Positions 36,709 to 61,844 of a stretch of DNA of 64,000 nt are shown here, in pieces (position 1 is the first letter of the stretch; every line of letters starts with the position of its first letter). The stretch comes from Rhodobacteraceae bacterium F11138. GTDB lineage: Bacteria > Pseudomonadota > Alphaproteobacteria > Rhodobacterales > Rhodobacteraceae. Both the position numbers and the translations under genes were made by a program. The stretch covers positions 1-64,000 of the forward strand of contig JAEKDP010000002.1 in NCBI GenBank assembly GCA_016521575.1, in the 5' to 3' direction. Under the pieces are notes generated by a model. That model saw nothing but the letters and a program-made list of their open reading frames with translations. It was not told the DNA's origin and searched no databases.

Positions 36709-38028
36709 CTATCGTTCGCGCAACGCCTCAAGCCGGGCCTTGCGGAAGGGTTTCAACAGATAGTCCAGCACTGTCTGTTCGCCGGTCATGATATCGATCG
36801 ACGCGACCATGCCGGGGCGGATGCGGTATGTCCGCCCCTTGTGTTCCAGGCTGTCGCTGTCGGTTTCGACGATCACCGGGAAATAGACCTCGCCCGTGGC
36901 CTCGTCCTGTTCGGCATCCGCGCCGACGCGCAGCACACGCCCGGCCAGCGCGCCATAAATGGTGAAATCGAACGCCGTAACCTTGACCTTGGCAGGCAGG
37001 TCCGGACGAACAAAGGCTATATCCTTCGGGGCGATACGGGCCTCGACCTGCAACTGGTCATCGTCGGGCACGATGCGCAGCACCTCTTCGCCGGGCTGGA
37101 TCACCGCCCCGATCGTGTTGACGTTCAGGGCCGACACCACCCCATCAACCGGCGCGCGCAGGCTGGCGCGCCGGACCACATCCCTGGCACGTTTCATCGA
37201 TTCGTCGATCACCGCCTTCTGGTTCAGCGTATCCGACCGTTCCATGCTGATTTCGGCCCGCCGGTTCAGATCCAGTTCGACCAGCCGCGCCTTGGCCTCG
37301 GTTTCGGCCGACCGCGCCTGAGCCAGTTTGCTGACCAGCGCGCTGAGTTCCTGGCGTTTGGCGGCGCGTTCACGTTCCAGGGGCAGGATCTGCGCCCGCG
37401 ACACCACGCCACTGGTTTCACGCAACTCGATTTCCTCTTGCAACAGCGCGAGCGCGTCTTCGACCTGGGGTATGGCCCCTTCGAGTTCGGCAATCTCTTC
37501 GCTGCGTTGGGACAGTTTCGCCTCCAGCACGTTGCGCTGCGCCTGATAAGAGGCAAGCCGGGACTGGAACAGGGCGATTTCCCGCAGGGTCTGCGGCGAT
37601 CCGGGATCGAATTCGGTGTCGGTGAAATCAAGTTCGGCATCGCCGCGCGCCTCGGCCTCCAACCGATGGTTGCGCGCCCCGAGCGCCAGTTGCTGCGCCC
37701 GCAGCTCACCCAGATTTGCCGCCGAACCGATATCGCTGATCCGGACCAGAACATCGCCGGCCCGCACGGTGTCGCCCTCGCGGACCTCAATACCGCGTAT
37801 GAGCCCCCCCTCGAGGCTTTCAACGGTGCGCGCCCGTCCCGACGGCACCACCCGCGCCTCGCCGCGGGTCACCTGTTCGATCCGCGCCCAACTGGCCCAG
37901 ATCAGCCCGCCTGCCACCAGGGCGACCAACAAGACCAGCAGCAGCGACACCAGCCAGGAGCTGCGTCCCATGCGCGCGTCGCCACCGCCGCCGGAAAAAA
38001 CACGCAGTTCCCAGTTGTCCGCGCTCAT
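36709..38028 (-). CDS. HlyD-family membrane fusion protein
   Basis: Periplasmic adaptor of a type I secretion system, 439 residues with a single N-terminal membrane anchor (about residues 25-48). The lipoyl and beta-barrel halves are separated by a long coiled-coil hairpin (about 130-290, heptad-rich). The GEVYFPVIVETD and GMVASIDIMTGEQTVLDYLLKPF tail are typical of HlyD/LapC. The start ATG 38028 overlaps the ABC transporter stop, so it is the third gene of the tolC-ABC-hlyD operon. Confidence 0.93.
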   Translation of the reverse strand: MSADNWELRVFSGGGGDARMGRSSWLVSLLLVLLVALVAGGLIWASWARIEQVTRGEARVVPSGRARTVESLEGGLIRGIEVREGDTVRAGDVLVRISDIGSAANLGELRAQQLALGARNHRLEAEARGDAELDFTDTEFDPGSPQTLREIALFQSRLASYQAQRNVLEAKLSQRSEEIAELEGAIPQVEDALALLQEEIELRETSGVVSRAQILPLERERAAKRQELSALVSKLAQARSAETEAKARLVELDLNRRAEISMERSDTLNQKAVIDESMKRARDVVRRASLRAPVDGVVSALNVNTIGAVIQPGEEVLRIVPDDDQLQVEARIAPKDIAFVRPDLPAKVKVTAFDFTIYGALAGRVLRVGADAEQDEATGEVYFPVIVETDSDSLEHKGRTYRIRPGMVASIDIMTGEQTVLDYLLKPFRKARLEALRER

Positions 38029-40310
38029 GACCTAGCCTCGGCCGCCGCATCCCGCAGGGTGGCCAGCACCGCCGATTTTTCACCATCGCGCACCACCTGA
38101 GCGGACTCCATCAGGATCAGGCGGTCGACCAGATCCAGCAGCCCCATGCGGTGAGTCGAGACGATCAATGTCATCGGCCGTTCCTGCAAGGCGGCGGCAA
38201 GATGGCGGATGAAGTCCTTTTCGCTTTGCATGTCCATGGCGCTGGTCGGCTCGTCCAGGATCAAGACCCGGGGGCGCGGCAACAGCGCCCGGGCCAGCGC
38301 CACCATCTGCCGCTGCCCCCCCGACAGGTTACGGCCCCGTTCCGTGATCGGCATGGAAAACCCGGCCGGATGCCGCGCTGCAATCCGGTCTACCCCGGCA
38401 ATGCGCGCCACATGCAGAATATCCTCGCCGGGGGCATCCGGCACGCCAAACGCGATATTTTCGGCCAGAGTGCCTGAAAACAGAACCGCCTCTTGCGGGA
38501 CCAGTTGGACAGCGCGCCGCACACGGGCGGTTTCGATCTGGTTCAGGTTCAGCCCGTCCAGCAGCACATTGCCCTCGCCCGGCGCATATAGCCCGGCCAT
38601 CACCCGCACGAGACTGGTCTTGCCCGCGCCGACCGGTCCGATGACACCGATCCGTTCGCCAGCCCGGATATCCACCGAGACATCGCGCAATGCCGGCACC
38701 TGCGTATGGGGATAGCTCAGCGTGATCGCCTCCAGCGCCAGCCGCCCCTGATCCAGCGGCGCGTTCAGCCCCGCAGCGGCCCGGCCCATATCGGACGGCA
38801 TCGCCATGATCTGGTTCAGGCTGCGCATGGTGGACACCGCAAAGCTGGCCCGCACGAACAGGTTTGCCAGCATGGCCGTGGGGGCCAATGCCCGCCCGGA
38901 CAGGATCATCGCGGCAATCACCGCACCCATGGTGATGCGGCCTTCAAGCGCCAGATAGACGCCGATCACCACGATCCCCACCGACGAAAGCTGTTGCAAC
39001 AGACCGGTCAGGGTCGTTGCATATGTCGCCAGACCCTTGCTGCGTTCCTGCGCGCGCGCGCTTTCGCCGACCTGGTGTTCCCAACGTGCCTGCATCCGGC
39101 CCTGTCCCGACACCGCTTTCAACGACTCGAGATCGGTGATCGTCTCGACGGCAACGGCATTCTTGCTGCCCTGTGCCTGGCGCGATGCGTTTGACGCATT
39201 GCGCAGCGGCCACAAGACGACAGCGCCCAGCACGAGCACGACAATCAGCGCCGCTGCCGGCGGCAGCGCAAGCGGCCCACCCAGATAGGCGATGACAGCG
39301 ATGAACAGCACCGCGAAACACAGATCGGTCAGCGTGGCCAATGTCTGGGACGAGAAGAAATCCCGCACCTGTTCGTAATCCTTGAGCGTGTTCATCAACG
39401 CCCCGCTGGGCATGGTCTGGCTGTCCAGACGCAGGTTGGACACATGGCGGAATATCGTTGACGACACCGCCTGATCGACCTGACGCCCGACACGATCCAC
39501 GATGGCCGCACGGACCCATTTCAGGGCATTGTCAAACAGCATCGCAAGCACCACGCCAGCGACCAGAGACCACAAGGTGACAACGGCAGCATTGGGAAAC
39601 ACCCGGTCATAGACCGTCATCGTGAAGATCGGAATCGCCAGCGCCAGCAAGTTGACCACCGAGGACGCCACGATGACCTGGGCATATTCCGGCCAGAAGC
39701 GGGCCGCGACGCTCCAGTACCAGTGGCGCTTTGAAACCGGTGCAAGCCGGGTCTCGGCGGGGCTGATGTCTTCGGGCCGCAACAGCAACACATGGCCTTG
39801 ATAAAGGTCCAGGATTTCAGCGACCGGCAAGGTGATCGGATCATCGGAACGGGACGGCCACAACAGGTTTGCCTCGTCCCCGGCCAAAGACAGCAGGACA
39901 CAGGCATCGCGCCCGTCCAGAAACAGGATCGCGGGCAGCACCGTTTCCGGAAGATCCTGCAATCGCCGCCGGGACAGGCGGGCGCGAAACCCGTGCAGTT
40001 CGGCCGACTGAACCGCCAGCTGCGGGGTCAGCCGACCATCACCGGGCAGCGCAAGGCCCGCAGTCAGAGACGCCTCAGCGACGTCTCGGCCCGTCGCACG
40101 CATCGCGGCAGACAGCGTGCGCACCAGCGGATCGCGCGAAACGGTGTCGAACTGCCAGTCAGCCTTCGCCGTCCTGGCCCGACCGGGCCTGAGCCGGATG
40201 GTGCGGTTCTCCGCCCGCTTCGCCGGCCCTTTCCCTGACCCCAAGCCGGCACCGCTTGCGCCGCCGTCGTTCTGATCCTTTTCCCGATCCGGGCCGCCGG
40301 GATCACTCAT
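38025..40310 (-). CDS. Type I secretion ABC transporter (LapB-like)
   Basis: Inner-membrane exporter ATPase, 761 residues from ATG 40310. Order: about 45 polar residues, a C39-peptidase-like domain (about 55-165) without the catalytic Cys-His signature (so a substrate-docking domain, not a protease), six transmembrane helices (about 200-470), then the nucleotide-binding domain with Walker A GPVGAGKTSLVR, signature LSGGQRQMVALARAL and Walker B VLILDEPTSAMD. A longer in-frame start overlaps tolC. The C39-like N-domain is as in LapB/HlyB exporters. No RTX or Lap-type substrate lies nearby. Confidence 0.93.
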   Translation of the reverse strand: MSDPGGPDREKDQNDGGASGAGLGSGKGPAKRAENRTIRLRPGRARTAKADWQFDTVSRDPLVRTLSAAMRATGRDVAEASLTAGLALPGDGRLTPQLAVQSAELHGFRARLSRRRLQDLPETVLPAILFLDGRDACVLLSLAGDEANLLWPSRSDDPITLPVAEILDLYQGHVLLLRPEDISPAETRLAPVSKRHWYWSVAARFWPEYAQVIVASSVVNLLALAIPIFTMTVYDRVFPNAAVVTLWSLVAGVVLAMLFDNALKWVRAAIVDRVGRQVDQAVSSTIFRHVSNLRLDSQTMPSGALMNTLKDYEQVRDFFSSQTLATLTDLCFAVLFIAVIAYLGGPLALPPAAALIVVLVLGAVVLWPLRNASNASRQAQGSKNAVAVETITDLESLKAVSGQGRMQARWEHQVGESARAQERSKGLATYATTLTGLLQQLSSVGIVVIGVYLALEGRITMGAVIAAMILSGRALAPTAMLANLFVRASFAVSTMRSLNQIMAMPSDMGRAAAGLNAPLDQGRLALEAITLSYPHTQVPALRDVSVDIRAGERIGVIGPVGAGKTSLVRVMAGLYAPGEGNVLLDGLNLNQIETARVRRAVQLVPQEAVLFSGTLAENIAFGVPDAPGEDILHVARIAGVDRIAARHPAGFSMPITERGRNLSGGQRQMVALARALLPRPRVLILDEPTSAMDMQSEKDFIRHLAAALQERPMTLIVSTHRMGLLDLVDRLILMESAQVVRDGEKSAVLATLRDAAAEARS

Positions 40311-40314
40311 GGTG

Positions 40315-41727
40315 CTATTTGTCCATCGACCGTCGCCAGTCCTTGAACGACTTGGCATCGAACCGCGTGGGTGCGTCCCCTGCCCCGACATCCGGTGCGT
40401 TCTGGAATTGCCGCGCATAATTGGTCGCATCTTCGGGGGGTTCGATGCCCATGGCGGTCAGCAGGGTTCCTGTCGCGGCCAGCAGGCGGTAGCGAATATA
40501 GGTTTCCAGCGACCGGGCATTTTCCAGATTGACCTGCGCCTGAAACAGCGCGTTCTGCGTATTCAGAATATCCAGCAACGAGCGGGACCCGACGGTGTAT
40601 TCCTCTTCGTATGTATTGCGCAGTTCCAGCGAAAGCTGTGCCTGACTGGCCAATGTCGAGACGCGCCGCTGCGCGGCCTGCCAATCGGCCCATGTGTCGC
40701 GCACCTCGCGTTCCACCAGACGGGTCTGGTGCAACAGGGTGGCACGGCTTTCGCTGATCCTGCGGATCTGTTCCTGGCGCGCGGCACGCTTGCGGTCGCC
40801 CTGGAATTCGTAACGCAGCACGACACCCACTTCGGCATCCGAAACCCGTCCCTCGTAGCCTCCCAGGTCCTCACCTGCGGTGACTTCCGCCTCCAGATGC
40901 AAAGTCGGTCCGCGATTGGCCTCGGCCACGCGCCAACGCGCTTCAGCCGATCCAACATCCGCCTGCGAAAAGCGGATTGTCGGGTTTTGCCGGCGCGCCA
41001 CGCTCAACGCCTGATCAAGCGAGCTGTGAACCGCCGCGGAAATGTTGGGCACCGCCCCCAGAGAGGTAGGTTCCGCACTGACGATCTGAACGAACTCGTT
41101 CTCGATGGTCTGGGCGTCAAGTTCAAAGTTGATCAGCGTATCCTGCGCGAACAGAACCCTCTCGCGGGCCTGCTGTACGTCACCCATCGGAATCGCGCCG
41201 CTGTCGAACGCATTGTCCAGACGGCCATAGACATCTTCATGATACTTCACGTTTTCCCGCGCCAGGTTCAGCATCGCTCGGGATCGGACCACATCCGCAT
41301 ACAGGCGCACCGCTTCAAGAGACAGGAACTCCGAGCGCTCCAACACCCGCAGCGCGGCGGCGTCAACGCGATAGGCCTGGCGTTCGATTTCGGATCGCAC
41401 CCGAAAACCGTCATACAATACCTGCGACACCCGCCCGGTGACGCGATAGCCCTCTATCGGGTCCGACGCAGACGACGCATCAATGGATCGGCTTCCGTCG
41501 TCATAGCTGGACCCGGCCCAGGCTTCCAATTCGAACTTCGGCATGCGAAAGGCGCGCGCCTGGTCCAGTTCGAATTCGATTGCCTGCTTGTTGGCTTCGG
41601 CGGCTTCGATTTCGGGATTGGTTTCCAGAACCGCCCGGATGGTGTCGTGCAAGGTCAGCGCCTGTGCTGGGCCGCTCAGAAAGACGGCGGCGATACCAAG
41701 AAGCGCAGGTGTAAGATGTCGTTTCAT
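40315..41727 (-). CDS. TolC-family outer membrane channel
   Basis: Outer-membrane efflux/secretion tunnel, 470 residues from ATG 41727 (MKRHLTPALLGIAAVFLSGPAQA, signal peptide). It contains the two homologous coiled-coil/beta repeats of TolC proteins (around residues 30-230 and 260-440). The block VNLENARSLETYIRYRLLAATG near the C-terminus is typical of type I secretion TolC/LapE proteins. It lies 4 bases before the ABC transporter, giving a full channel of three genes (tolC-ABC-hlyD). Confidence 0.92.
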   Translation of the reverse strand: MKRHLTPALLGIAAVFLSGPAQALTLHDTIRAVLETNPEIEAAEANKQAIEFELDQARAFRMPKFELEAWAGSSYDDGSRSIDASSASDPIEGYRVTGRVSQVLYDGFRVRSEIERQAYRVDAAALRVLERSEFLSLEAVRLYADVVRSRAMLNLARENVKYHEDVYGRLDNAFDSGAIPMGDVQQARERVLFAQDTLINFELDAQTIENEFVQIVSAEPTSLGAVPNISAAVHSSLDQALSVARRQNPTIRFSQADVGSAEARWRVAEANRGPTLHLEAEVTAGEDLGGYEGRVSDAEVGVVLRYEFQGDRKRAARQEQIRRISESRATLLHQTRLVEREVRDTWADWQAAQRRVSTLASQAQLSLELRNTYEEEYTVGSRSLLDILNTQNALFQAQVNLENARSLETYIRYRLLAATGTLLTAMGIEPPEDATNYARQFQNAPDVGAGDAPTRFDAKSFKDWRRSMDK

Positions 41728-41936
41728 GATACCTCTGAAAGCGCGAGTTGATCGGACATGCCTAACGTCTAAAGTGACTCGCGCCAAAGTGCAAAACGAG
41801 AGTAATCTTATCGCCGACAGAGTCTTCCGTGCCACAGGGTGGCCGCCCGTCCCGATGACCCCACGCCGACGGCTTTGCCCCCATTGGCCAGGACACCCAG
41901 CGATGCAGTCACCGTGCAGACCCTGGGGATTGAAGG

Positions 41937-42938
41937 TCAGGCTGGATGGACCCGCTCGTGATCTGCTGGTGCGGGGGACGGAATGTGCAAATAGCGGCTG
42001 CCGTCGACAAATTCAGTCATCGACATGGGCCAGATCGTTCCGGGCCAACGGATCTCCATTTCCAGTTTTCGGGGGCGATAGACGGCCGTGTAAAGCGTCC
42101 CGAATCCGACGGAAAACGCCGTCGAATACAGCGGCGGTTTCAGGAATGTTTCGATGAATTTCTCTTGCGGGTCACGATGCAGGGTCAACCGTTGCAGCAA
42201 GAAACGTTCGCGTTCCACAGTGGCCGTGAAACGCGCATGGCTGATCCATTCGACGGCTTCCTGATGGTTGGTCGCAACGGCGGCATGGGTCATGACCGCA
42301 GGGCGATCCGGGGCCATCATCGCGGTCAGGTAGTTTCGTTTGCGGTCCAGCACCGTGACGTTATAGCTCATGTGGGTCGGCAGCCGCGCAAGGGCTGCGC
42401 CCGCTTCCGCGGTGGTGGTGCAGGTTTGCAGCACATAGCGCAGGATCAGCGGCACGCCGAACCCTTCGCCGACCACCCGCCGTCCCCCGAACGTCAGCGA
42501 AAGCGCCAGGCCGGCATCATTCATGCCATCCACCAGCCCCCACAGCCCGTCGCTGACCCCGATCACGCGACGGCCCTGCCAATTGGTGTTCAGGATCAGG
42601 CTGTCGAACGCATGGGGATTGTAGTCATAGTTGCGCACCAGCACCGGTTCCTTGCCGGTCCAGATGGCTTGTGAACACCCCGACAGGTAAGGCGGCGGAC
42701 AGTGAAAGCTGAGAAAGCGCGCGGCCTGATCGCCGCCTCCGGCCAGATCGCAAAGCTGATCGTACAGCGGCACGATCTCGGGCATGTGACGTTCCAGCGC
42801 GCGGCGGCTTTCCAGATAGGGCGCGCGCATGCCTTCACCCTCACTCAACCACCATTTGCGATAGTCGGGCCAGTATTCCTGAAACAAGCCGGCCCATTTC
42901 GGGCCGGGCGTGTCTTCTTTCAGGGCACGCCAGAGCAT
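41937..42938 (-). CDS. C45-family NTN acyltransferase/hydrolase
   Basis: Resembles the acyl-CoA:6-aminopenicillanic acid acyltransferase (peptidase C45) family of N-terminal-nucleophile enzymes, which mature by self-cleavage before a Cys and make or break amides. 333 residues from ATG 42938; GGAGG lies ten bases upstream. The cleavage/nucleophile site is C88 in YLSGCSQAIWTG, followed by the family's RNYDYNP. SDGLWGLVDGMNDAGLALSL is also typical. It is the last gene of a four-gene operon and starts 17 bases after the ATP-grasp gene stop. Acyl or aminoacyl-amide substrate unknown. Confidence 0.8.
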   Translation of the reverse strand: MLWRALKEDTPGPKWAGLFQEYWPDYRKWWLSEGEGMRAPYLESRRALERHMPEIVPLYDQLCDLAGGGDQAARFLSFHCPPPYLSGCSQAIWTGKEPVLVRNYDYNPHAFDSLILNTNWQGRRVIGVSDGLWGLVDGMNDAGLALSLTFGGRRVVGEGFGVPLILRYVLQTCTTTAEAGAALARLPTHMSYNVTVLDRKRNYLTAMMAPDRPAVMTHAAVATNHQEAVEWISHARFTATVERERFLLQRLTLHRDPQEKFIETFLKPPLYSTAFSVGFGTLYTAVYRPRKLEMEIRWPGTIWPMSMTEFVDGSRYLHIPSPAPADHERVHPA

Positions 42939-42954
42939 GGCCGTGATGCCTCCG

Positions 42955-44415
42955 TCACATGATCTTGAAAGCCGGATCGGCAAAAGCAGGACCCGCTTCG
43001 GCGACCGGCAACGGCTTGGCCGACACGCATTGCTTGATCCCGTGGATCCATTTCTTGGCCCGTTCGTTCAACTGGAAGCCCTTTGTCATCGACCGGCCCC
43101 GCGTGACCAGAATGCCGATATCCGCGCCCTCATAGCGATAATCGCCCGGTTGCAGGATGCGCAGGAAGAAGGCTTCGTTTTCGCTTTCGACCGCACGGCG
43201 GTGATAGTCAAAACGATCAAAGACCACCCGTCCGTCTTCGAGCATGCGATAGATCCCCGTTTCCGGAGCGTCGGTGCAGATGTCGACGCTGTCATCGGTA
43301 TGCTTGATCACCATCTGGGACCAGCTGTCGATCATATCGGGATTGGCCCAGCGTGCGTTCAGCTCGTCGACGTCCAGATTGAACTTCTTGCGGCTGAATT
43401 CCAGCAGATGAAACAGGAACAACGGCGCATCCGCATGCGCAAACGCGGCATGGTTGGTCATTGAACTGGCCCCGGTGATACGCGGGTTCAGCTCGCCCAG
43501 CCAAAGTTCGCCGGTCTTCTTGTCGATCAGGAAATCCAGTTCGAAATACCCGCGATAGCCCTCCTTTCGCAGCTGTTCACCGAATTTGAAGGTCAGATCG
43601 CGTGCCTGGTTGCGCACCTTGGGCGGAAAGGCCGTCGACAGGATTTCATTGCCGCACCAGCCCCCGCGATAGGGGGTCAGTTCCTTGAAACCGACCAATT
43701 CGGTCATCAGCGGGCCGACGATCGTGCCTTCCTTGGTGGCGCAGGCCTCGATCGCCGAACCACGGCAATCGATCCGCTTCATGATCTTGATTTCGCCCTC
43801 GCCTATGATTTCATGTTCGTGTCGGCGAAAATCGGCTTCGGACTTGATGAAGAACGTGGTGTGGCCGCTATCGCCGAACGCCGATTGCAGCACCAGATCG
43901 TTCCCGATCCCCGCCTTTTCACAGGTCTTTTGCAGATCCTCATAGGATTTGACTTCGGCCAGCACATTGGGGACCGAAGGCACCCCGGCCTTGTTGCCGA
44001 TGCGCACGGTTTCGATCTTGTTGTCCATCTTGGTGCGCAGCTTGGCCTTGGGAAACCAGACCTCGGCGCCCAGTTCCTTGGACAGGCGTTCGGTTTCCTC
44101 ATCGAACATCAGGAACACGAACTTGGGCTTGCCCCCGCGCCGCTTGATGAAATCGATCACCTCTTTGTGCTGCAGCAGATAGTTGTTGATGTCCTCGATG
44201 CTCTGGAACTCGGCATGAGGCTGCTCGCTGGGGCAGAACACGTTTGGATGTTTGCCGCCATAACAGTCGATATAGCAGATGTATTTGAAGTTGCGCACCC
44301 ATTCATCCAGCCCCAACAGGTTGAAATTGGTCGCGGAAATGAAATATATCGGATCCTCGTTGCGGTGAAAGAACCGGCGGATTTCCGAAATATTGTTCAG
44401 GATCTTCGTGGCCAT
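42955..44415 (-). CDS. ATP-grasp ligase, unknown substrate
   Basis: 486 residues. The ATP-grasp core lies between about 100 and 340, with substrate/ATP residues in LVLQSAFGDSGHTTFFIKSE, IKIMKRIDCRGSA and the metal-binding GYFELDFLIDKKTGELWLGELNPRITGASS. Biotin carboxylase-type annotations are common for such proteins, but there is no biotin carboxyl carrier. It is more likely to join a carboxylate to an amine via an acyl phosphate. It sits 14 bases after the decarboxylase gene, whose amine product is a natural candidate substrate (inference). Confidence 0.8.
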   Translation of the reverse strand: MATKILNNISEIRRFFHRNEDPIYFISATNFNLLGLDEWVRNFKYICYIDCYGGKHPNVFCPSEQPHAEFQSIEDINNYLLQHKEVIDFIKRRGGKPKFVFLMFDEETERLSKELGAEVWFPKAKLRTKMDNKIETVRIGNKAGVPSVPNVLAEVKSYEDLQKTCEKAGIGNDLVLQSAFGDSGHTTFFIKSEADFRRHEHEIIGEGEIKIMKRIDCRGSAIEACATKEGTIVGPLMTELVGFKELTPYRGGWCGNEILSTAFPPKVRNQARDLTFKFGEQLRKEGYRGYFELDFLIDKKTGELWLGELNPRITGASSMTNHAAFAHADAPLFLFHLLEFSRKKFNLDVDELNARWANPDMIDSWSQMVIKHTDDSVDICTDAPETGIYRMLEDGRVVFDRFDYHRRAVESENEAFFLRILQPGDYRYEGADIGILVTRGRSMTKGFQLNERAKKWIHGIKQCVSAKPLPVAEAGPAFADPAFKIM

Positions 44416-44429
44416 GATATTTTCCCTGT

Positions 44430-47168
44430 TTATTCAGCTGCTGTCTTGAGCTTGATTTGCGCGTGTTTTTCCAGCGCGTCTTGTGTAAATACCCGCAGCC
44501 CCAGGTCCGCGCGGTATCCGTGGATTTCATTGACATCCAGCGCCAGCATGAAGGCGAGTATTTCCTGGCTGACGACCTGCCCCGGCACCAGGATCGGAAA
44601 CCCCGGCGGATAGGGAATGATGAAGCTGGCCGAGACCACCTCCTGCCCCGCGTCCAGTGCCCGTTTCAGCGAGCCGTCCAGTTCCAGGTAATCGCAGTTC
44701 TCTTCTTCATAGCTGAGAAAGAAGGCCGAGCGGATGTCACCCTCGACCGTGCCCAGATCGGTCCGGAACGCATCGTGGAACCGGCTGAAGTCAGGCAGCG
44801 GCGGCAAGTCTTCCATCAGGTTCCTGACGCGGCGATCAAACGACAGGCGTTCCATCTTGCTGGCGTCATCCAACAGTTCATCCAGCCCCTTGGCGATCTC
44901 GACCAGAACCTCGATCAGATAGGCGACACTGGACCGGGTGGTGCCGATATTGGTCATGAACAGAACGGTGTTGCGGGATGTCTTGTTGATCTGGATGCCG
45001 TATTTGTCCATCAGCACATTGGTCTTGAACGTATCCCCGTCCCAACCGGTGCCCCCCACGGCCAGCGTGACGCGGGTGGCATCCAAGACGAATTCGTCCT
45101 TTTCCCAGCAATCCCAGATATCGGTCCAGCCCTGTTCGACATCATAATAGCTGCTCACGCCGCTTTCGCGATGCTGTTCGGGTATCATGTCGCCTGCCGA
45201 CAACACCTTGAAATACTTGCTCAACAACGGGTGCGATGCAATCGAGCGGCGCATCGACATCGCCGCTTCGACCTGGCGCTGCACGAACTCGAAACCTTCC
45301 AGTTCCACCTGTCGCCTTCCCACGTCCAGGCTGGCGATGATCTGATAGTTCGGTGAGGTCGAGGTATGGGTCATATAGGCTTCGTGGAAGCTTTGCTCGA
45401 CCTCGCCCTTGAAGTCCTGATCGTTGACATGGATCATCGAACCCTGCCGCAACGACGTCAGCGTCTTGTGGGTGGATTGCGTCGCATAGACCCGCACGCG
45501 CGCGGTCGGCGGTGGGATCAGACGGGTCGCCAGCAGCTTATCGTCATCCGCGCCCTCAAGTTCCTTCTGCTGCGCCTCATAGGCTTCGCGATGGGCGTCG
45601 CCGCGGAACTTTTCGCGCAGGGTGGCGGCCACATTCATCGCCGTGCGCTGACGATAGGTCGGGGCGAACCGGGCAAAGGCGAACCATGCTTCATCCCAAA
45701 GAAAGATCAGGTCCGGCTTGATCGCCAGACATTCTTCCATGACACGTTCAACGTTGTAGACGATGCCGTCAAACGTGCAGTTGGTCAAAAGCAGCATGCG
45801 CACGCGATCAAGCTTGCCCGCCGCCTTGAGGGTCAGCAGTTGATGCTTGATCTCGCGCAGCGGCACCGCACCGTACATCGAGTATTCATTCAGCGGATAA
45901 CTGTCCAGATACACCACCTGCGCCCCGGCCAGCACCATGCCGTAGTGGTGCGATTTGTGGCAATCGCGGTCGACCAAAACGATGTCCCCGGGACTGACCA
46001 GCGCCTGAACCACGATCTTGTTGCAGGTCGAGGTGCCATTGGTGGCAAAGAAGGTCTGTTTGCTGCCAAAGGCGCGGCTGGCCAGTTCCTGCGCCCGCTT
46101 GATCGGGCCGTGTGGTTCCAGCAGCGAATCCAGCCCGCCCGAGGTGGCCGAGGTTTCCGCGAGAAAGATGTTGGGCCCGTAGAACGCCCCCATATCCTGA
46201 ATCCAATGGCTGCGGCTGATCGATTTTCCGCGGCTGATCGGCATGGCATGAAACACGCCGGTGGGCTGTTTCGAATATTCGACCAGCGCGGTGAAAAACG
46301 GTGTCTTGAACCGGGACTGCACGCCGCGCAGGATGTTCAGATGCAGTTCCAGGAAGTCCTCCTGATTATAGAACACCCGCCGACAGATTCCCAAATCCAG
46401 CCCCGCGATCTCTTCGACCGAGCGTTCGGTGATCAGATAGGCGTCCAGTTCCGGGCGCACCCTGTCGATCAGACGGCAGAGTTCCGGGCCGTAATCTTCG
46501 GTCTGCAGGGTTTCCAGCTGCTTCATCCCGCCCGCCCGCGCCAGATAGCGAGTCAGCAGTTGCAGGCTCATATTGGAATGCAGCCTCAGCCCCGGACGCA
46601 CGACAATGGCCTGAATATTATGGTTGAACAGCACCGCGATCAGCGCGTCCTCAAGGCTGGGCACGACCAGCGCCTCATAGGTGAACGGATCTTCGGGACG
46701 CCGCATCCGCGTCATGTTCGATTTGAGCCAACGTTCCTGTTGTTCATTCACGTCATCGACGATCAGAACCTCGAAATAGGGTTTGCTCATCGCCCGCGCT
46801 TCGGGCGACAGCTGGGCTTCGTCGTCATGTTCTTCGCTGTCGACGCTGTCCCGTTCCAGCGGGATATGCCGACGCCGGTATGCACCGGTCGTCAGCGCAC
46901 GGGTCACCCGGCTGACCGAAAACGCCAGGTCGTCAAAAGTCCCGTGTTCGAACTGTCTGCGCATGTGATCGAAGGCCGCCATGCCCGGAAAGGCCCAATA
47001 GGGTTCGATCAGCGCCAGCGAGGAAAACAGCTCTTCGGATTTCTTGCGCAGCGCGTTCAGCTTGCGCTCGTTTTTTTCCTTGGTCAAAGACGTGCTCACG
47101 TCGCGCAGCGCGCTCCAGCGATCTGACCTGAGTTGAATCGCGGAATAGTAATCGTTTACTGAGTGCAT
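44430..47168 (-). CDS. Large Orn/Lys/Arg-type PLP decarboxylase
   Basis: 912 residues from ATG 47168, longer than E. coli ADC/LDC (about 715-755). Order: a helical N-terminal extension (about 1-130) with no known motif, a receiver-like wing domain (FEVLIVDDVNEQQERW, about 135-230), the PLP fold with SHHYGMVLAGAQVVYLDSY and the Schiff-base Lys in YATQSTHKTLTSLRQG, and a C-terminal domain. A TAGRT-type substrate specificity is not readable by eye; arginine, lysine or ornithine are all possible. The product would be agmatine, cadaverine or putrescine. It is second in the operon, 71 bases after the carbon-nitrogen hydrolase. Confidence 0.88.
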   Translation of the reverse strand: MHSVNDYYSAIQLRSDRWSALRDVSTSLTKEKNERKLNALRKKSEELFSSLALIEPYWAFPGMAAFDHMRRQFEHGTFDDLAFSVSRVTRALTTGAYRRRHIPLERDSVDSEEHDDEAQLSPEARAMSKPYFEVLIVDDVNEQQERWLKSNMTRMRRPEDPFTYEALVVPSLEDALIAVLFNHNIQAIVVRPGLRLHSNMSLQLLTRYLARAGGMKQLETLQTEDYGPELCRLIDRVRPELDAYLITERSVEEIAGLDLGICRRVFYNQEDFLELHLNILRGVQSRFKTPFFTALVEYSKQPTGVFHAMPISRGKSISRSHWIQDMGAFYGPNIFLAETSATSGGLDSLLEPHGPIKRAQELASRAFGSKQTFFATNGTSTCNKIVVQALVSPGDIVLVDRDCHKSHHYGMVLAGAQVVYLDSYPLNEYSMYGAVPLREIKHQLLTLKAAGKLDRVRMLLLTNCTFDGIVYNVERVMEECLAIKPDLIFLWDEAWFAFARFAPTYRQRTAMNVAATLREKFRGDAHREAYEAQQKELEGADDDKLLATRLIPPPTARVRVYATQSTHKTLTSLRQGSMIHVNDQDFKGEVEQSFHEAYMTHTSTSPNYQIIASLDVGRRQVELEGFEFVQRQVEAAMSMRRSIASHPLLSKYFKVLSAGDMIPEQHRESGVSSYYDVEQGWTDIWDCWEKDEFVLDATRVTLAVGGTGWDGDTFKTNVLMDKYGIQINKTSRNTVLFMTNIGTTRSSVAYLIEVLVEIAKGLDELLDDASKMERLSFDRRVRNLMEDLPPLPDFSRFHDAFRTDLGTVEGDIRSAFFLSYEEENCDYLELDGSLKRALDAGQEVVSASFIIPYPPGFPILVPGQVVSQEILAFMLALDVNEIHGYRADLGLRVFTQDALEKHAQIKLKTAAE

Positions 47169-47239
47169 CAGTCGGCCTCCCTGTTCGGGAGTGTCCGACC
47201 GATTCCCCATAATTGCAACCAGTTCGCTGCAACAGCGAT

Positions 47240-48211
47240 CTAGCCGGTGGAAGATTCTTTTGTAATTTCCTGTGTTTCCAACCCCTTGGAAAAAGGCGTG
47301 TTGTCCGACTGCTCGGCGGTGAGGTTTGGAACCTCGACATGCAACCCGGCCCGGGTGCCCTGATGCTGCATCTCAAGCGGCCCGAGTGTCGTCAGATACG
47401 CATCCGTACCGCTGTCGCGGTCATAGACCGGGAAATCCGTGGAGCGGTCGCGAAAGCTTTTGAGAACCTGTCCCAGACCCTTCATGCCGGTTTCGCGCTG
47501 GCGCCGCACCACGTCCAGATCTATTTCGATCGGGAACATGTCTTCCTGCCCGGCCGATTGATGCAGGACAACCGATGTGGGGTCGACAACGCAGGATTTG
47601 CCCACTCCGCCTGCACCCAATCCGTTGACATCGAACACATAGCACTGGAACTGTGCCGCGGTTGCCCGGGCAATCGCCAATTCCGCATCGCGATCGGTGG
47701 TGCCTGTCAGGACCGGGTGCAACAACACCTCGACCCCCTGGCTGGTCAGCTGCCGGGTGGTTTCGGGGAACCACATATCATAGCAGATCGACAGGCCGAA
47801 CCGGCCGACCTCGGGCACGTCGAAAACACAGAATTCAGTGCCCGCCTCGACATCGACCTCATACGGGCGGAACGGGAACATCTTGTTATAGCGGGTCACG
47901 ATCTCGCCCTGCGGATTGATCACGACCGATGTGTTGCGAACCAGACCATCCTCGCCCTTGATGAACATCGAGCCCGGAATCAGCCAGACCTTGTGGCGGT
48001 GCGCGGCCTGGCAGAAGCGCGTGATCGCCTCGTTCTGCGCGGGCTGGGCAAAGCGGTGCAAGGGGCCATAGGGTGCGAGTTCACTGAACAGAACCATCTG
48101 CGTCCAGGGAAAGCGCGCCATGAGAATGTCCAATCTCTGGATCATGCCTTCGACATTGGAATGAAGAGCGCCGACATGCATCTGCACACCAGCGATTGCA
48201 AAGGGGGTCAT
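47240..48211 (-). CDS. Carbon-nitrogen hydrolase (nitrilase superfamily)
   Basis: 323 residues from ATG 48211, with GGAG upstream. The catalytic triad is visible: Glu in LFSELAPYG, Lys in TRYNKMFPF, Cys in LSICYDMWFPE. The superfamily includes N-carbamoylputrescine amidase and other amidases, which would fit a polyamine or agmatine pathway. The GVEVLLHPVLTGTTDRD region is not a perfect AguB match, so the amide substrate is open. It is first in the four-gene operon running to the C45 gene. Confidence 0.85.
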   Translation of the reverse strand: MTPFAIAGVQMHVGALHSNVEGMIQRLDILMARFPWTQMVLFSELAPYGPLHRFAQPAQNEAITRFCQAAHRHKVWLIPGSMFIKGEDGLVRNTSVVINPQGEIVTRYNKMFPFRPYEVDVEAGTEFCVFDVPEVGRFGLSICYDMWFPETTRQLTSQGVEVLLHPVLTGTTDRDAELAIARATAAQFQCYVFDVNGLGAGGVGKSCVVDPTSVVLHQSAGQEDMFPIEIDLDVVRRQRETGMKGLGQVLKSFRDRSTDFPVYDRDSGTDAYLTTLGPLEMQHQGTRAGLHVEVPNLTAEQSDNTPFSKGLETQEITKESSTG

Positions 48212-48409: not shown

Positions 48410-49471
48410 CTAGGCGCGTCGGCGGCGGCCACCGGATCGGCCACCGCGGCCGCGGCCTGCTTCGCCGGCCTTGGGTGGCAATTTGTTGGTGCGAATCCAT
48501 TCCGCCCCGTGCGGATCGTTGTCCGTCAGGAAATTGGCGGCGCGGATCGCTTCCATTTCCGAACCTGCGCGGGACTTGGTTGATCCCATGCCAAACAGCG
48601 TCACAAAGGTTTCATCGTCGATCCCCTCTGGCAGGATGATACCCGCCGCTTCGATCTCGGCCTTCTTTGCGGCGATCTTGCTTGGCGGGACCGGCAGTGC
48701 GACCGGGTTCATGATGGCGCTGGTCATTCCCGCCCCCATGGCCATTGGCAGAAACGCATTGTTGACCCCATGCCGGTTCGGCAAGCCGAAACTGATGTTC
48801 GACGCGCCGCATGTGGTGTTCACGCCCAGTTCTTCGCGCAGACGCCGCACCAGGGCAAAAACCTGCAGCCCGGCCGTCCCCATCGCGCCGATTGGCATCA
48901 CCAGCGGATCGACCACGATATCATGCGCCGGGATTCCGAAATCGGCCGCACGCTCGACGATTTTCTTGGCAACCGCAAAACGGACATCGGGGTCTTCCGA
49001 GATTCCGCTGTCATCATTGGAGATCGCCACCACCGGCACGTTGTATTTCTTGACCAGCGGCAGAATCCGTTCCAGCCGTTCTTCCTCGCCGGTAACCGAA
49101 TTCAGCAAGGGGCGTCCCTGGCATACCTCAAGTCCGGCCTCCAACGCTGCGGGAACCGAACTGTCAATACATAGAGGAACATCTACAAGCTCTTGTACAA
49201 GCTTCAGAATCTCAACCATAAGAGGTGGTTCAGTCTCGTTGGGATTGGGGTTGGAATTGTAAACAACCCCTGCGTTCACATCCAGCACCGTGGCGCCGGC
49301 CGCGACCTGCGCCAGCGCATCCTTCTCCACCGTCGAAAAGTCACCTGCTTCCAGTTCGGCAGCCAACTTCTTTCGCCCGGTCGGGTTTATCCGTTCGCCA
49401 ATGACGCAGAACGGTTGGTCAAAACCGATGATGGCTGTCTTGGTTTTGCTTTCGACGATGGTGCGGGTCAT
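48410..49471 (-). CDS. Methyl-THF:corrinoid methyltransferase-like protein
   Basis: Pterin-binding TIM-barrel methyltransferase, 353 residues from ATG 49471. It contains CVIGERINPTGRKKL, DVNAGVVYNSNPNPNETEPP, DSSVPAALEAGLEV and NDDSGISEDPDVR of the methyltetrahydrofolate:corrinoid class, which moves methyl between folate and a corrinoid protein. The C-terminal GRGRGGRSGGRRRRA is an unusual Arg/Gly-rich tail, perhaps binding nucleic acid or aiding solubility. It follows an MTHFR-like gene by 10 bases, so the pair forms a one-carbon module. Confidence 0.85.
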   Translation of the reverse strand: MTRTIVESKTKTAIIGFDQPFCVIGERINPTGRKKLAAELEAGDFSTVEKDALAQVAAGATVLDVNAGVVYNSNPNPNETEPPLMVEILKLVQELVDVPLCIDSSVPAALEAGLEVCQGRPLLNSVTGEEERLERILPLVKKYNVPVVAISNDDSGISEDPDVRFAVAKKIVERAADFGIPAHDIVVDPLVMPIGAMGTAGLQVFALVRRLREELGVNTTCGASNISFGLPNRHGVNNAFLPMAMGAGMTSAIMNPVALPVPPSKIAAKKAEIEAAGIILPEGIDDETFVTLFGMGSTKSRAGSEMEAIRAANFLTDNDPHGAEWIRTNKLPPKAGEAGRGRGGRSGGRRRRA

Positions 49472-49481
49472 GGACGTCCTT

Positions 49482-50411
49482 TCAGGATGCGTTTGCGGGG
49501 CGGCCCGAAGCACCGCCATTGTTGATGGCCCAGGTGGCATTTGCCTTGATCCCGCCCAGCGGGAAGAAATGCACGTTGGTGATGTTGAAGTCGGGGTTTG
49601 CCGCGCTGTACGCGGCCAGTTCGGCGATCAGATCGGTCGGTTCATAGGGCAGCAACAGCTTGCTGACATCCATGGCGCGCTTCTGCAGCACCTTGAGCGA
49701 CGGGCCGACACCGCAGGCAATGGCGAACTTGATCAGGGTCTGCAGTTTGGCAGGGCCCGCGATGCCGATGTGAATGGGCAAGGTGATCCCCGCCTCGGAC
49801 AGATCGCGGGCCCAGGAAATGATGGGTTTGGCGTCAAACGCGAACTGGGTCGCCAGCGCCATTTCCGCATCAGTACGCTCCGAAAAGTCTTGTTTCCATT
49901 CAAGGGCTTGCAATACGTTCTTTATGCCGCCGTCGGGGTCAATGTCGCGGTTGCCCTCGGGATGGCCCGCCACATGCAGCCGTTTGAACCCGGCCTTGTC
50001 GAACAACCCGGTTTCCATCAACTGCATCGAATTGTCGAAGTCGCCGACCGGACGGGCGACTCCGCCCGCCAACAGCAGCGCCTGATCGACACCGGCTTCG
50101 CCCTGATAGCGCGCGATCCAGTCTTGCAGCATAGGCGCATCCTGGATGATCCGGGCCGGAAAATGCGGCATCACCGCATAGCCATCCCCGGCCAGCCGTT
50201 TGGCCGTGGCCACCATCTCATCAATCGGTGTGCCCTGGATATGGGCAATGTAAACCCGCGTTCCTTCGGGCAGCAGCGCGCGGAAATCTTCGACCTTTTC
50301 GGCCGTGCGCGGCATCACCTCGATGGAATAGCCCCGCAGAAACGACTCGACCTGTTCATTTGCCGGTCCTACGGGCTGCGTCTCACGCTTCTTGAAATTC
50401 AACAATGCCAT
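49482..50411 (-). CDS. Methylenetetrahydrofolate reductase-like protein
   Basis: 309 residues from ATG 50411, preceded by GGGAGG. The TIM barrel has YIAHIQGTPIDEMVATAKRL, VDQALLLAGGVARPVGDFDNSM, GFKRLHVAGHPEGN and LPIHIGIAGPAKLQTLIKFA, which are recognisable as an MTHFR-family flavin/folate barrel, but it is diverged from MetF and lacks the usual EFFPP start. It is in an operon with the corrinoid methyltransferase and may oxidise methyl-THF to methylene-THF in methylamine/betaine or other methyl-donor use, rather than methionine synthesis (inference). Confidence 0.83.
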   Translation of the reverse strand: MALLNFKKRETQPVGPANEQVESFLRGYSIEVMPRTAEKVEDFRALLPEGTRVYIAHIQGTPIDEMVATAKRLAGDGYAVMPHFPARIIQDAPMLQDWIARYQGEAGVDQALLLAGGVARPVGDFDNSMQLMETGLFDKAGFKRLHVAGHPEGNRDIDPDGGIKNVLQALEWKQDFSERTDAEMALATQFAFDAKPIISWARDLSEAGITLPIHIGIAGPAKLQTLIKFAIACGVGPSLKVLQKRAMDVSKLLLPYEPTDLIAELAAYSAANPDFNITNVHFFPLGGIKANATWAINNGGASGRPANAS

Positions 50412-50431
50412 CGTGGCCTCCCAGATGGACG

Positions 50432-50737
50432 TCAGGCGCATGCCCAGCCGTCGTTGTCGATCAAAGCCTTGATCCGCGTCTTGTCGTACTCGGATTCGAG
50501 CCGGGCGACCTCGGAATCAGCGACAGATTGGGGGTCTGTACCTTCAACCACATAGGGTGCTGCCTTGCGCCATTCGGCCAAATAGGCATCACTGTCCCTG
50601 GCATTGATTTTCATCGCCGCACGGTCAATCGCCTGTTCAAAACGTTCAGACAGTGGCCGCTTGGCACCGCGACGTCCTTTGCCAACGATAACCTGCGCCG
50701 GAATATCGCGCCAATAAACAACCGTGACTTCGGGCAT
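50432..50737 (-). CDS. Small 'virulence factor' family protein
   Basis: 101 residues, starting MPEVTVVYWRDIPAQVIVGKGRRGAKRPLSERFEQAID, which is the conserved start of a small family labelled 'virulence factor' without known function. No catalytic motif or signal peptide. It is first in the operon with the MTHFR-like and corrinoid methyltransferase genes (20 and 10 base gaps). The name should be ignored; context points to one-carbon metabolism. Confidence 0.78.
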   Translation of the reverse strand: MPEVTVVYWRDIPAQVIVGKGRRGAKRPLSERFEQAIDRAAMKINARDSDAYLAEWRKAAPYVVEGTDPQSVADSEVARLESEYDKTRIKALIDNDGWACA

Positions 50738-61412: not shown

Positions 61413-61844
61413 TCACCGCACCACAAAGACCGAGCATCTTGCATATCTGGCAACGCGTGCTGCGTTGGGTCCCATCACGAAATCCTTGATATCCGGCTTG
61501 TGGGCACCGATCACGATCAGATCGGTGCCCGCCAATTCCGCGGCGTGCAGGATTTCGGAATAGGCCGACCCGGTCGCAACAATATGCCGGATCTTCTGGT
61601 TGCGCGCGTCGCCAACCGTCGCAACGCAAAGCTTGCGCAATTGTTTACCCGCCTCGCTTTCGGCTTTCTCGTGGAAATTCTCCTCGAAGAAATCGGATAC
61701 AAGACTTTTGCCAAAATCCGGAACCACCGTGATCACATCCAGCTGCGCGTCATCCGCATCCGCCAGCCGCACGGCCTGTTCCAACACTTTCGCGTCCACG
61801 TCCGCGTTACTGACATCGACAGCACAAAGAACCGAATTCGTCAT
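61413..61844 (-). CDS. Universal stress protein partnered with TRAP permease
   Basis: 143 residues from ATG 61844 (MTNSVLCAVDVSNADVDAKVLEQAV), USP fold. The ATP-binding pattern GxxG...G(S/T) is degraded: GAHKPDIKDFVMGPNAAR has the first Gly, Lys in the second Gly position and GPN for GST, so ATP binding is uncertain. The ATG overlaps the TRAP permease stop. In Halomonas the USP TeaD similarly pairs with the TeaABC TRAP system and regulates uptake in an ATP-linked way, which suggests a similar role (inference). Confidence 0.88.
   Translation of the reverse strand: MTNSVLCAVDVSNADVDAKVLEQAVRLADADDAQLDVITVVPDFGKSLVSDFFEENFHEKAESEAGKQLRKLCVATVGDARNQKIRHIVATGSAYSEILHAAELAGTDLIVIGAHKPDIKDFVMGPNAARVARYARCSVFVVR

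What the first reader, a model, noticed from the sequence alone, without database searches (positions are those of the whole stretch)
41937..48211. Four-gene amine/amide operon: Nit-hydrolase, giant PLP decarboxylase, ATP-grasp ligase, C45 NTN enzyme
Seen: four minus-strand genes with gaps of 71, 14 and 16 bases, encoding a carbon-nitrogen hydrolase (E-K-C triad intact), a 912-residue Orn/Lys/Arg-type decarboxylase with an unexplained helical N-terminal extension of about 130 residues, an ATP-grasp ligase without a biotin carrier, and a C45 acyltransferase-like enzyme (C88). Known: decarboxylase makes a diamine or agmatine; ATP-grasp joins carboxylate to amine; C45 makes or exchanges amide bonds; Nit proteins cleave amides. 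Inference: the operon makes, remodels and recycles an N-acyl or aminoacyl polyamine-like compound. I know no named pathway with this combination; this is the best candidate here for an undescribed system.
Basis: partly seen in the sequence, partly recalled or inferred. Interest (0 to 1): 0.75.

Follow-up and report, generated by a model that had tools for sequence, protein, structure and literature searches.

The report
Conserved four-gene amino-acid/amide operon
Four neighbouring enzyme genes travel together as a block in many marine and soil bacteria, and their company (ectoine breakdown, GABA-type aminotransferases, aspartate antiporters) points to an undescribed route for using amino acids, not to a polyamine product.

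Summary
In detail: four intact minus-strand genes, gaps 71, 14 and 16 bases. The block is real: NIT-DC-GRASP-C45 is contiguous in 106 of 122 GRASP loci. It is patchy: GRASP in 11 of 385 class and 37 of 198 family genomes.

The diamine/agmatine reading is not supported. DC belongs with M. tuberculosis Rv2531c (solved, activity unknown). It fails the Lys/Arg/Orn decarboxylase cut-offs and has NK(T/S)(S/T)RN where three solved Lys/Arg decarboxylases have VEK(T/S)G. The 'biotin carboxylase' has lost the QVEH residues, so it is probably a carboxylate-amine ligase.

New context: in one unnamed family (halomonads by my guess) the block sits inside the ectoine-degradation operon in 22 of 22 loci looked at. 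Eleven of 13 DCs found away from the block adjoin AspT-like antiporters. Class-III aminotransferases and TAXI-TRAP transporters exceed control stretches.

Best reading: a catabolic module that makes an omega-amino acid (beta-alanine, GABA or 5-aminovalerate) and makes and breaks an amide of it. Substrates are unproven.

The parts
47240..48211 (-). NIT: carbon-nitrogen (nitrilase-superfamily) hydrolase, 323 aa, first gene
   Evidence: PF00795 102 bits; E51/K117/E125/C150 of the 330-aa frame invariant in 28 of 28; nearest solved relatives by sequence NitFhit and Nit2, 86 bits
44430..47168 (-). DC: PLP fold-type I decarboxylase-like protein of the Rv2531c subfamily, 912 aa
   Evidence: OKR_DC_1 255 bits; 9n0n 837 bits; STHK lysine and NK(T/S)(S/T)RN motif
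42955..44415 (-). GRASP: ATP-grasp enzyme named 'biotin carboxylase' PRK06524, 486 aa; probably a carboxylate-amine ligase
   Evidence: 761.8 bits, cut-off 684; BC/PurK fold, model pLDDT 86.5; QVEH of a pyruvate carboxylase BC domain replaced by TGAS
41937..42938 (-). C45: autoproteolytic Ntn-type amidase/acyltransferase, 333 aa (nucleophile C88), last gene
   Evidence: NF040521 179.9 bits, cut-off 85; model pLDDT 91.9 matches isopenicillin N acyltransferase 2x1c at E 2e-12 and NAAA at E 2e-10

Best explanation
The four genes are one catabolic module for an omega-amino acid. DC alpha-decarboxylates an amino acid whose far end is not a free amine, most likely aspartate or glutamate (giving beta-alanine or GABA), possibly an omega-amide or acyl derivative of them or of a diamino acid. 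GRASP is an ATP-dependent carboxylate-amine ligase that forms an amide of this chemistry. C45 (Ntn amidase/acyltransferase) and NIT (amidase) break amides and release the free omega-amino acid. A class-III aminotransferase (GabT or PRK07483 type) and a succinate-semialdehyde-type dehydrogenase, encoded nearby or elsewhere, then burn it. Shown: gene block, conservation, catalytic residues, loss of canonical motifs, contexts. Inferred: all substrates, the order of steps, and what GRASP joins.
For: Unit: NIT-DC-GRASP-C45 contiguous in 106 of 122 loci, with 118 distinct GRASP C-termini among the 122; DC/GRASP identity correlation 0.93 over 26 chosen loci (shared ancestry adds to this). Not a Lys/Arg/Orn DC: scores far below cut-offs; NK(T/S)(S/T)RN in 39 of 39 DCs of one set and 123 of 124 of another where 6q6i, 6y3x and 9e0m have VEK(T/S)G; the one miss, L100, lacks the stretch altogether. 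Acidic substrate: 11 of 13 DCs looked at outside the block adjoin AspT-like antiporters (not in 85, 89), two with aspartate 4-decarboxylase; a Cupriavidus block is followed by DctA/GltP-like and glutamate/aspartate-SBP-like genes, both below their cut-offs. Omega-amino acid: class-III aminotransferase in 23 of 44 loci against 3 of 40 control stretches, PuuR-like 11 of 44 against 0 of 40; L096 and L098, without DC, carry GabT-, SSADH- and succinate-glutarate-CoA-transferase-like genes. Ectoine: doeA-doeB-doeX-NIT-GRASP-C45-DC-doeC-doeD on one strand in 22 of 22 loci looked at, with DoeA, DoeB and EutB above cut-off in L190. Ligase rather than carboxylase.
Against: No enzyme of the block, and no close homologue that I found, has a known substrate. 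The AspT-linked DCs are one clade on a long branch, inside the block-linked DCs under midpoint rooting, so their substrate may have changed. Two plasmids (87.6% identical to each other over 21.4 kb) place GRASP-C45 among arginine-catabolism genes, and one genome places NIT-C45 beside an L-amino-acid oxidase/monooxygenase homologue; neither needs Asp or Glu. SSADH (6 of 44 against 1 of 40, p 0.07) and SpeB (2 of 44 against 1 of 40) are not clearly enriched, and 21 of 44 loci have no class-III aminotransferase nearby, nor has the window. The role of Glu526 of LdcI (VEKTG) in binding the substrate amine is recalled, not tested. Rv2531c shares the Asn but not the Arg of the motif.
Confidence: 0.4

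Rival explanations
1. Protected chain-shortening of basic amino acids: GRASP acylates the side-chain amine of Lys, Orn or diaminobutyrate; DC (oxidatively, giving a primary amide that NIT hydrolyses) or a replacement (monooxygenase; DadA/AruI/ALDH) removes the alpha carbon; C45 takes the acyl group off to leave 5-aminovalerate, GABA or beta-alanine. Arginine, already capped by its guanidino group, uses SpeB instead.
For: L097 has C45-NIT next to an FAD enzyme 957 bits from 3we0 L-amino acid oxidase/monooxygenase (its use of lysine is recalled); Shinella L198 has SpeB-AruI-ALDH-GRASP-C45-DadA-Alr as annotated with a NIT of the same family (59%); SpeB-like gene beside the block in L054 and L056; glutarate-pathway-like genes in L096 and L098; loss of the acidic residue in DC would suit a capped side chain.
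Against: The monooxygenase homologue is in 5 of 198 family genomes and only one of these has GRASP; the AruI link is two closely alike plasmids. SpeB is not enriched. AspT and glutamate/aspartate transporter links are not explained. An oxidative reaction in this fold is speculation.
Confidence: 0.2
2. The block makes and recycles a carnosine-like dipeptide of beta-alanine or GABA (osmolyte, buffer or store): DC supplies the omega-amino acid, GRASP joins it to a second amine, C45/NIT hydrolyse it on demand.
For: ATP-grasp without bicarbonate residues; Ntn amidase plus Nit amidase in one operon; marine hosts and co-location with ectoine genes; peptide-type ABC transporters next to some blocks (7 of 63 named loci).
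Against: Neighbouring aminotransferases, PuuR-like regulators and degradation operons look catabolic; loci without DC exist.
Confidence: 0.15
3. One reading: DC makes a diamine or agmatine and the other enzymes make and remodel an N-acyl or aminoacyl polyamine-like compound.
For: OKR fold; PuuR-like regulator near 11 of 44 loci.
Against: DC fails Lys/Arg/Orn cut-offs and the Lys/Arg motif; AspT and ectoine contexts.
Confidence: 0.1
4. Plain arginine decarboxylase/AguB genes beside two unrelated genes.
For: Pfam-level family names only.
Against: 106 of 122 loci keep the contiguous order; AguB model 56 of 410 bits and ADC model 177 of 1167 bits.
Confidence: 0.02

Closest known systems
M. tuberculosis Rv2531c (9n0o in PMC12910592; 9n0n and 9n0p taken as the same protein)
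   Same: Full-length match to DC, 837 bits with phmmer, 1076 with the profile; same PGQ and NK motifs
   Different: Has INKTSIN where the proteobacterial DCs have NK(T/S)(S/T)RN; its activity is unresolved according to PMC12910592 (passages seen); its gene neighbours were not looked at
Lysine/arginine/ornithine decarboxylases (LdcI, AdiA, SpeF)
   Same: Fold, PLP lysine in STHK, CHKS histidine
   Different: Longer N-terminal region; no VEK(T/S)G glutamate and PGQ for PGE against the three Lys/Arg chains shown (ornithine decarboxylases not shown); far below curated cut-offs
Biotin carboxylase / PurK (ATP-grasp)
   Same: Fold; ATP-site E, N, R kept
   Different: Q-V-E-H replaced by (T/S)-G-(A/C)-(S/T); no biotin carrier found
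Isopenicillin N acyltransferase / NAAA / C45
   Same: Predicted fold, Cys nucleophile
   Different: About 15% identity; substrate unknown; stands in an amino-acid operon
Ectoine degradation operon doeABX-doeCD(-eutBC)
   Same: In one family the block is inserted in it, same strand
   Different: Described Doe steps do not need these four enzymes (recalled); no doeA or doeX hit in the window
Puu (gamma-glutamylputrescine) pathway
   Same: Ligase plus amidase plus GabT plus PuuR-like regulator (pathway recalled)
   Different: The ligase is ATP-grasp, the amidases are C45/Nit; a decarboxylase is built in

Membership tests
Canonical Lys/Arg/Orn decarboxylase (LdcI, AdiA, SpeF) | Score above curated NCBIfam cut-off | tested here: not met
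   LdcC model 217.9 of 968, ADC 176.7 of 1167, ODC 166.2 of 794, SpeF 155.2 of 1310
Canonical Lys/Arg/Orn decarboxylase (LdcI, AdiA, SpeF) | Acidic residue of VEK(T/S)G, as in 6q6i, 6y3x and 9e0m | tested here: not met
   N in place of E in 39 of 39 DCs; ornithine decarboxylases not compared; the role of the Glu is recalled
OKR_DC_1 fold family | Pfam PF01276 match with PLP lysine | tested here: met
   255.3 bits, cut-off 27; STHK present
Rv2531c-like subfamily | Full-length similarity incl. N-terminal region | tested here: met
   28-915 aligned, 837 bits
NCBIfam PRK06524 'biotin carboxylase' | Score above cut-off | tested here: met
   761.8 of 684
Functional biotin carboxylase | Bicarbonate-site Gln/Glu after the Arg (QVEH; role recalled) | tested here: not met
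   (T/S)-G-(A/C)-(S/T) at 314-317 in 22 of 22 rows
Functional biotin carboxylase | Biotin carrier partner in the operon | tested here: not met
   None among the four genes
C45 autoproteolytic acyltransferase/hydrolase | Score above NF040521 cut-off and conserved Cys | tested here: met
   179.9 of 85; Cys in 33 of 33
C45 autoproteolytic acyltransferase/hydrolase | Self-cleavage and acyl transfer or hydrolysis | not testable with these tools
   needs protein
N-carbamoylputrescine amidase (AguB) | Score above TIGR03381 cut-off | tested here: not met
   56.3 of 410.25
Nitrilase superfamily | Glu-Lys-Cys triad | tested here: met
   28 of 28 rows
Ectoine degradation system | Located in doe operon | tested here: inconclusive
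   22 of 22 loci of one family, but not in the window; a DoeA homologue (59%) lies on another contig of the window's genome

The most novel reading that the evidence does not exclude
The four genes are a previously undescribed, horizontally mobile metabolic module in which an Rv2531c-type enzyme decarboxylates an acidic (or omega-capped) amino acid and an ATP-grasp ligase/C45 amidase pair installs and removes an amide on the omega-amino acid. It plugs into ectoine, arginine and lysine catabolism. A branch of the decarboxylase has become half of a new decarboxylase-AspT antiport pair in rhizobia.
Probability: 0.3. Interest if true: 0.78.

Novelty: new variant of a known kind. Interest (0 to 1): 0.62.

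Why it matters
It links four poorly understood enzyme families, two of them misleadingly named in databases ('biotin carboxylase', 'Orn/Lys/Arg decarboxylase'), into one testable pathway that recurs in Roseobacter-group bacteria and in an ectoine-degrading family. It also offers a first functional lead for the Rv2531c family, whose structure is solved but whose reaction is unknown. The ectoine context suggests what to feed, and the AspT context makes DC specificity a direct, cheap assay.

Tried and rejected
Rejected: biotin carboxylase (active-site loss); ADC/AguB; chance adjacency. Considered and lowered: DC replacing lysine monooxygenase; SpeB as a regular partner (2 of 44 against 1 of 40). 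I first read the PGE-to-PGQ change as loss of the substrate Glu. Counting positions in the alignment by hand put the residue that I recall as Glu526 in VEKTG instead, so no role is claimed for PGQ. S. meliloti decarboxylase names gave only a search listing and were not pursued. Rfam at gathering thresholds showed only a tRNA far from the block. Papers: PMC12910592 passages only; all others as search listings only; the JBC 2025 Rv2531c paper is not held.

Counting notes. The 44 test loci are GRASP loci of 18 kb or more; shorter ones were dropped. Its 40 controls are round-number stretches that I chose in 31 of the genomes. Loci are related, so p values overstate independence. Of 27 GRASP genomes, 22 loci were looked at and 5 not. 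The 13 DCs outside the block are those fetched: of 39 plasmid records seven were opened at DC, and most of the others were not. In one search, 122 of 124 DCs fitted a narrower pattern; L065 fits the wider one; L100 lacks the stretch. PYPPGFPxxVPGQ was found in 124 of 124, but L199 and L205 show no such match and L200 and L206 have PYPPGSP.
Full report
What is there. The four genes are present, intact and co-directional at the stated coordinates, with gaps of 71, 14 and 16 bases when the ATG starts at 48211, 47168, 44415 and 42938 are used. Catalytic residues are invariant across the relatives aligned. Downstream lies a type I secretion set (TolC-, LssB-, HlyD-type genes), upstream one-carbon-type genes. 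TolC and the three upstream genes gave no hit over 60 bits in any of the 47 relatives' loci searched, so they are local neighbours.

Is it a unit? Pairwise identities co-vary: DC/GRASP r 0.93 (26 loci), DC/NIT 0.92 (21), DC/C45 0.83 (26), part of which is shared ancestry. GRASP is in 11 of 385 class genomes and 37 of 198 family genomes; DC at E 1e-60 is in 11 of the same 385, nine of them shared. Patchiness and plasmid copies suggest horizontal movement (inference).

Variants. Loci without DC but with GRASP, C45 and NIT: L079, L096, L097, L098, L099; L061 has GRASP alone of the four, and L064 only the end of GRASP plus C45. L096 and L098 carry GabT-, SSADH- and succinate-glutarate-CoA-transferase-like genes (the last 533 of 750 bits in L098, below cut-off), and L096 also an acyl-CoA dehydrogenase. 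L097 has C45-NIT beside an FAD enzyme 957 bits from the L-amino acid oxidase/monooxygenase 3we0. A Shinella plasmid and one labelled Roseateles, 87.6% identical over 21.4 kb, have permease-Usp-SpeB-AruI-ALDH-GRASP-C45-DadA-Alr-RidA as annotated, with a same-family NIT in the first (59% identity). Rhizobium plasmids L205 and L206 have DC-GRASP-C45 followed by a peptide-type ABC transporter and an amidase, L205 beside nifHDK.

The ectoine link. In the family of genome G651 (unnamed; I guess halomonads from the ectoine genes), 27 of 101 genomes have GRASP. Twenty-two loci were looked at, and in all 22 the order is doeA-doeB-doeX-NIT-GRASP-C45-DC-doeC-doeD on one strand, with eutB or eutBC following in some. 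In L190, DoeA (654 of 613 bits), DoeB (491 of 402.7) and EutB (PRK07476, 453 of 413) pass curated cut-offs. The eutC gene passes the cyclodeaminase model PRK08291 (420 of 408) but not the EutC model (353 of 472). The names doeX, doeC and doeD are mine, from position and the recalled doe operon; their best models are Lrp, SSADH and the class-III aminotransferase PRK07482. The window's own genome has a DoeA homologue (59%) on another contig.

The AspT link. Thirteen DCs outside the block were looked at. Eleven adjoin AspT-like genes: L065 and L066 (the L066 protein scores 534.9 on TIGR03802, cut-off 546.95), L256, L257, L258, L260, L261 (annotated) and L313-L316. L255 and L259 do not. Most other plasmid hits were not opened. 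The 11 form one clade (100/100), inside block-linked DCs under midpoint rooting and on a long branch, so they may have drifted in substrate.

Controls. Against 40 stretches of about the same length in 31 of the genomes, 44 GRASP loci show class-III aminotransferase 23 against 3, TAXI 19 against 1, Usp 15 against 0, PuuR-like 11 against 0, SSADH 6 against 1 (p 0.07), SpeB 2 against 1, monooxygenase 1 against 0, AruI 0 against 5. So 21 of 44 loci have no class-III aminotransferase nearby. In the window's genome a GabT (83% identical), a PRK07483-type aminotransferase (76%) and a PuuR-like gene (66%) lie together, about 245 kb from the block on the same contig. A TAXI-TRAP-Usp set, 38-65% identical to the block-linked ones, runs from 61416 past the window end.

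The enzymes. DC matches the Rv2531c chain over its whole length; the activity of that protein is described as not clarified (PMC12910592, passages). Against the three Lys/Arg decarboxylases shown, it keeps the CHKS and STHK motifs but has NK(T/S)(S/T)RN for VEK(T/S)G and PGQ for PGE. The first is present in 39 of 39 DCs of the tree set and 123 of 124 of the larger set; the exception, in L100, lacks the stretch. I recall the Glu of that motif (Glu526 of LdcI) as the side-chain amine binder; no call tested this. The change to Asn, with an Arg four residues on, argues against a free omega-amine on the substrate (inference). GRASP has the biotin-carboxylase/PurK fold but not the Q-V-E-H that follows the Arg in a biotin-carboxylase domain (role in bicarbonate use recalled). 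C45 is predicted to have the isopenicillin N acyltransferase/NAAA fold. NIT is closest to NitFhit and Nit2 among solved sequences.

How it most likely works. The common factor of the contexts is an omega-amino acid: Asp or Glu chemistry (AspT, DctA/GltP-like, ectoine to aspartate as recalled), GABA (GabT, PuuR-like), 5-aminovalerate (glutarate-type genes). I therefore favour a module that produces an omega-amino acid by decarboxylation, passes it through an ATP-made amide, and feeds it to a transaminase and dehydrogenase. What GRASP joins, and why, is not known. The protected chain-shortening scheme and the dipeptide scheme remain open.

Novelty. The searches made in the held library found no paper on this combination (searches listed none; 101 one unrelated). 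Each enzyme belongs to a known fold family; the combination and two of the contexts (ectoine operon, DC-AspT pair) appear undescribed, as far as those searches go; no search was made for the DC-AspT pair by name.

Noticed in passing
L256, L257, L258, L260, L261, L313-L316, L065, L066: Rv2531c-type decarboxylases next to AspT-like antiporters (two with aspartate 4-decarboxylase, and HdeA/HdeB in L256): a likely acid-resistance decarboxylase-antiporter pair; whether it is described was not searched.
   Followed up: partly
L190, L191, L292-L311: Ectoine-degradation operon of one unnamed family carries four extra genes between doeX and doeC.
   Followed up: yes
L205: Rhizobium plasmid carries DC-GRASP-C45-ABC-amidase directly beside nifHDK, suggesting a bacteroid role.
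   Followed up: no
L100 7583-9985: The DC of this Roseovarius locus lacks an internal stretch that holds the NK motif.
   Followed up: no
window 42955-44415: NCBIfam PRK06524 names this family 'biotin carboxylase' although the Q-V-E-H residues are absent.
   Followed up: yes
window 61416-64000: Usp and fused TRAP permease on the minus strand; the TAXI binding protein follows just past the window end. A set like those next to relatives' blocks, but 13 kb from this block.
   Followed up: partly
window 36709-41835: Type I secretion set (HlyD, LssB-type ABC, TolC) directly downstream, same strand.
   Followed up: no
window 48410-50737: Pterin-binding methyltransferase, a weak methylenetetrahydrofolate-reductase-like gene and a PF13769 'virulence factor' domain gene just upstream, same strand.
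   Followed up: no
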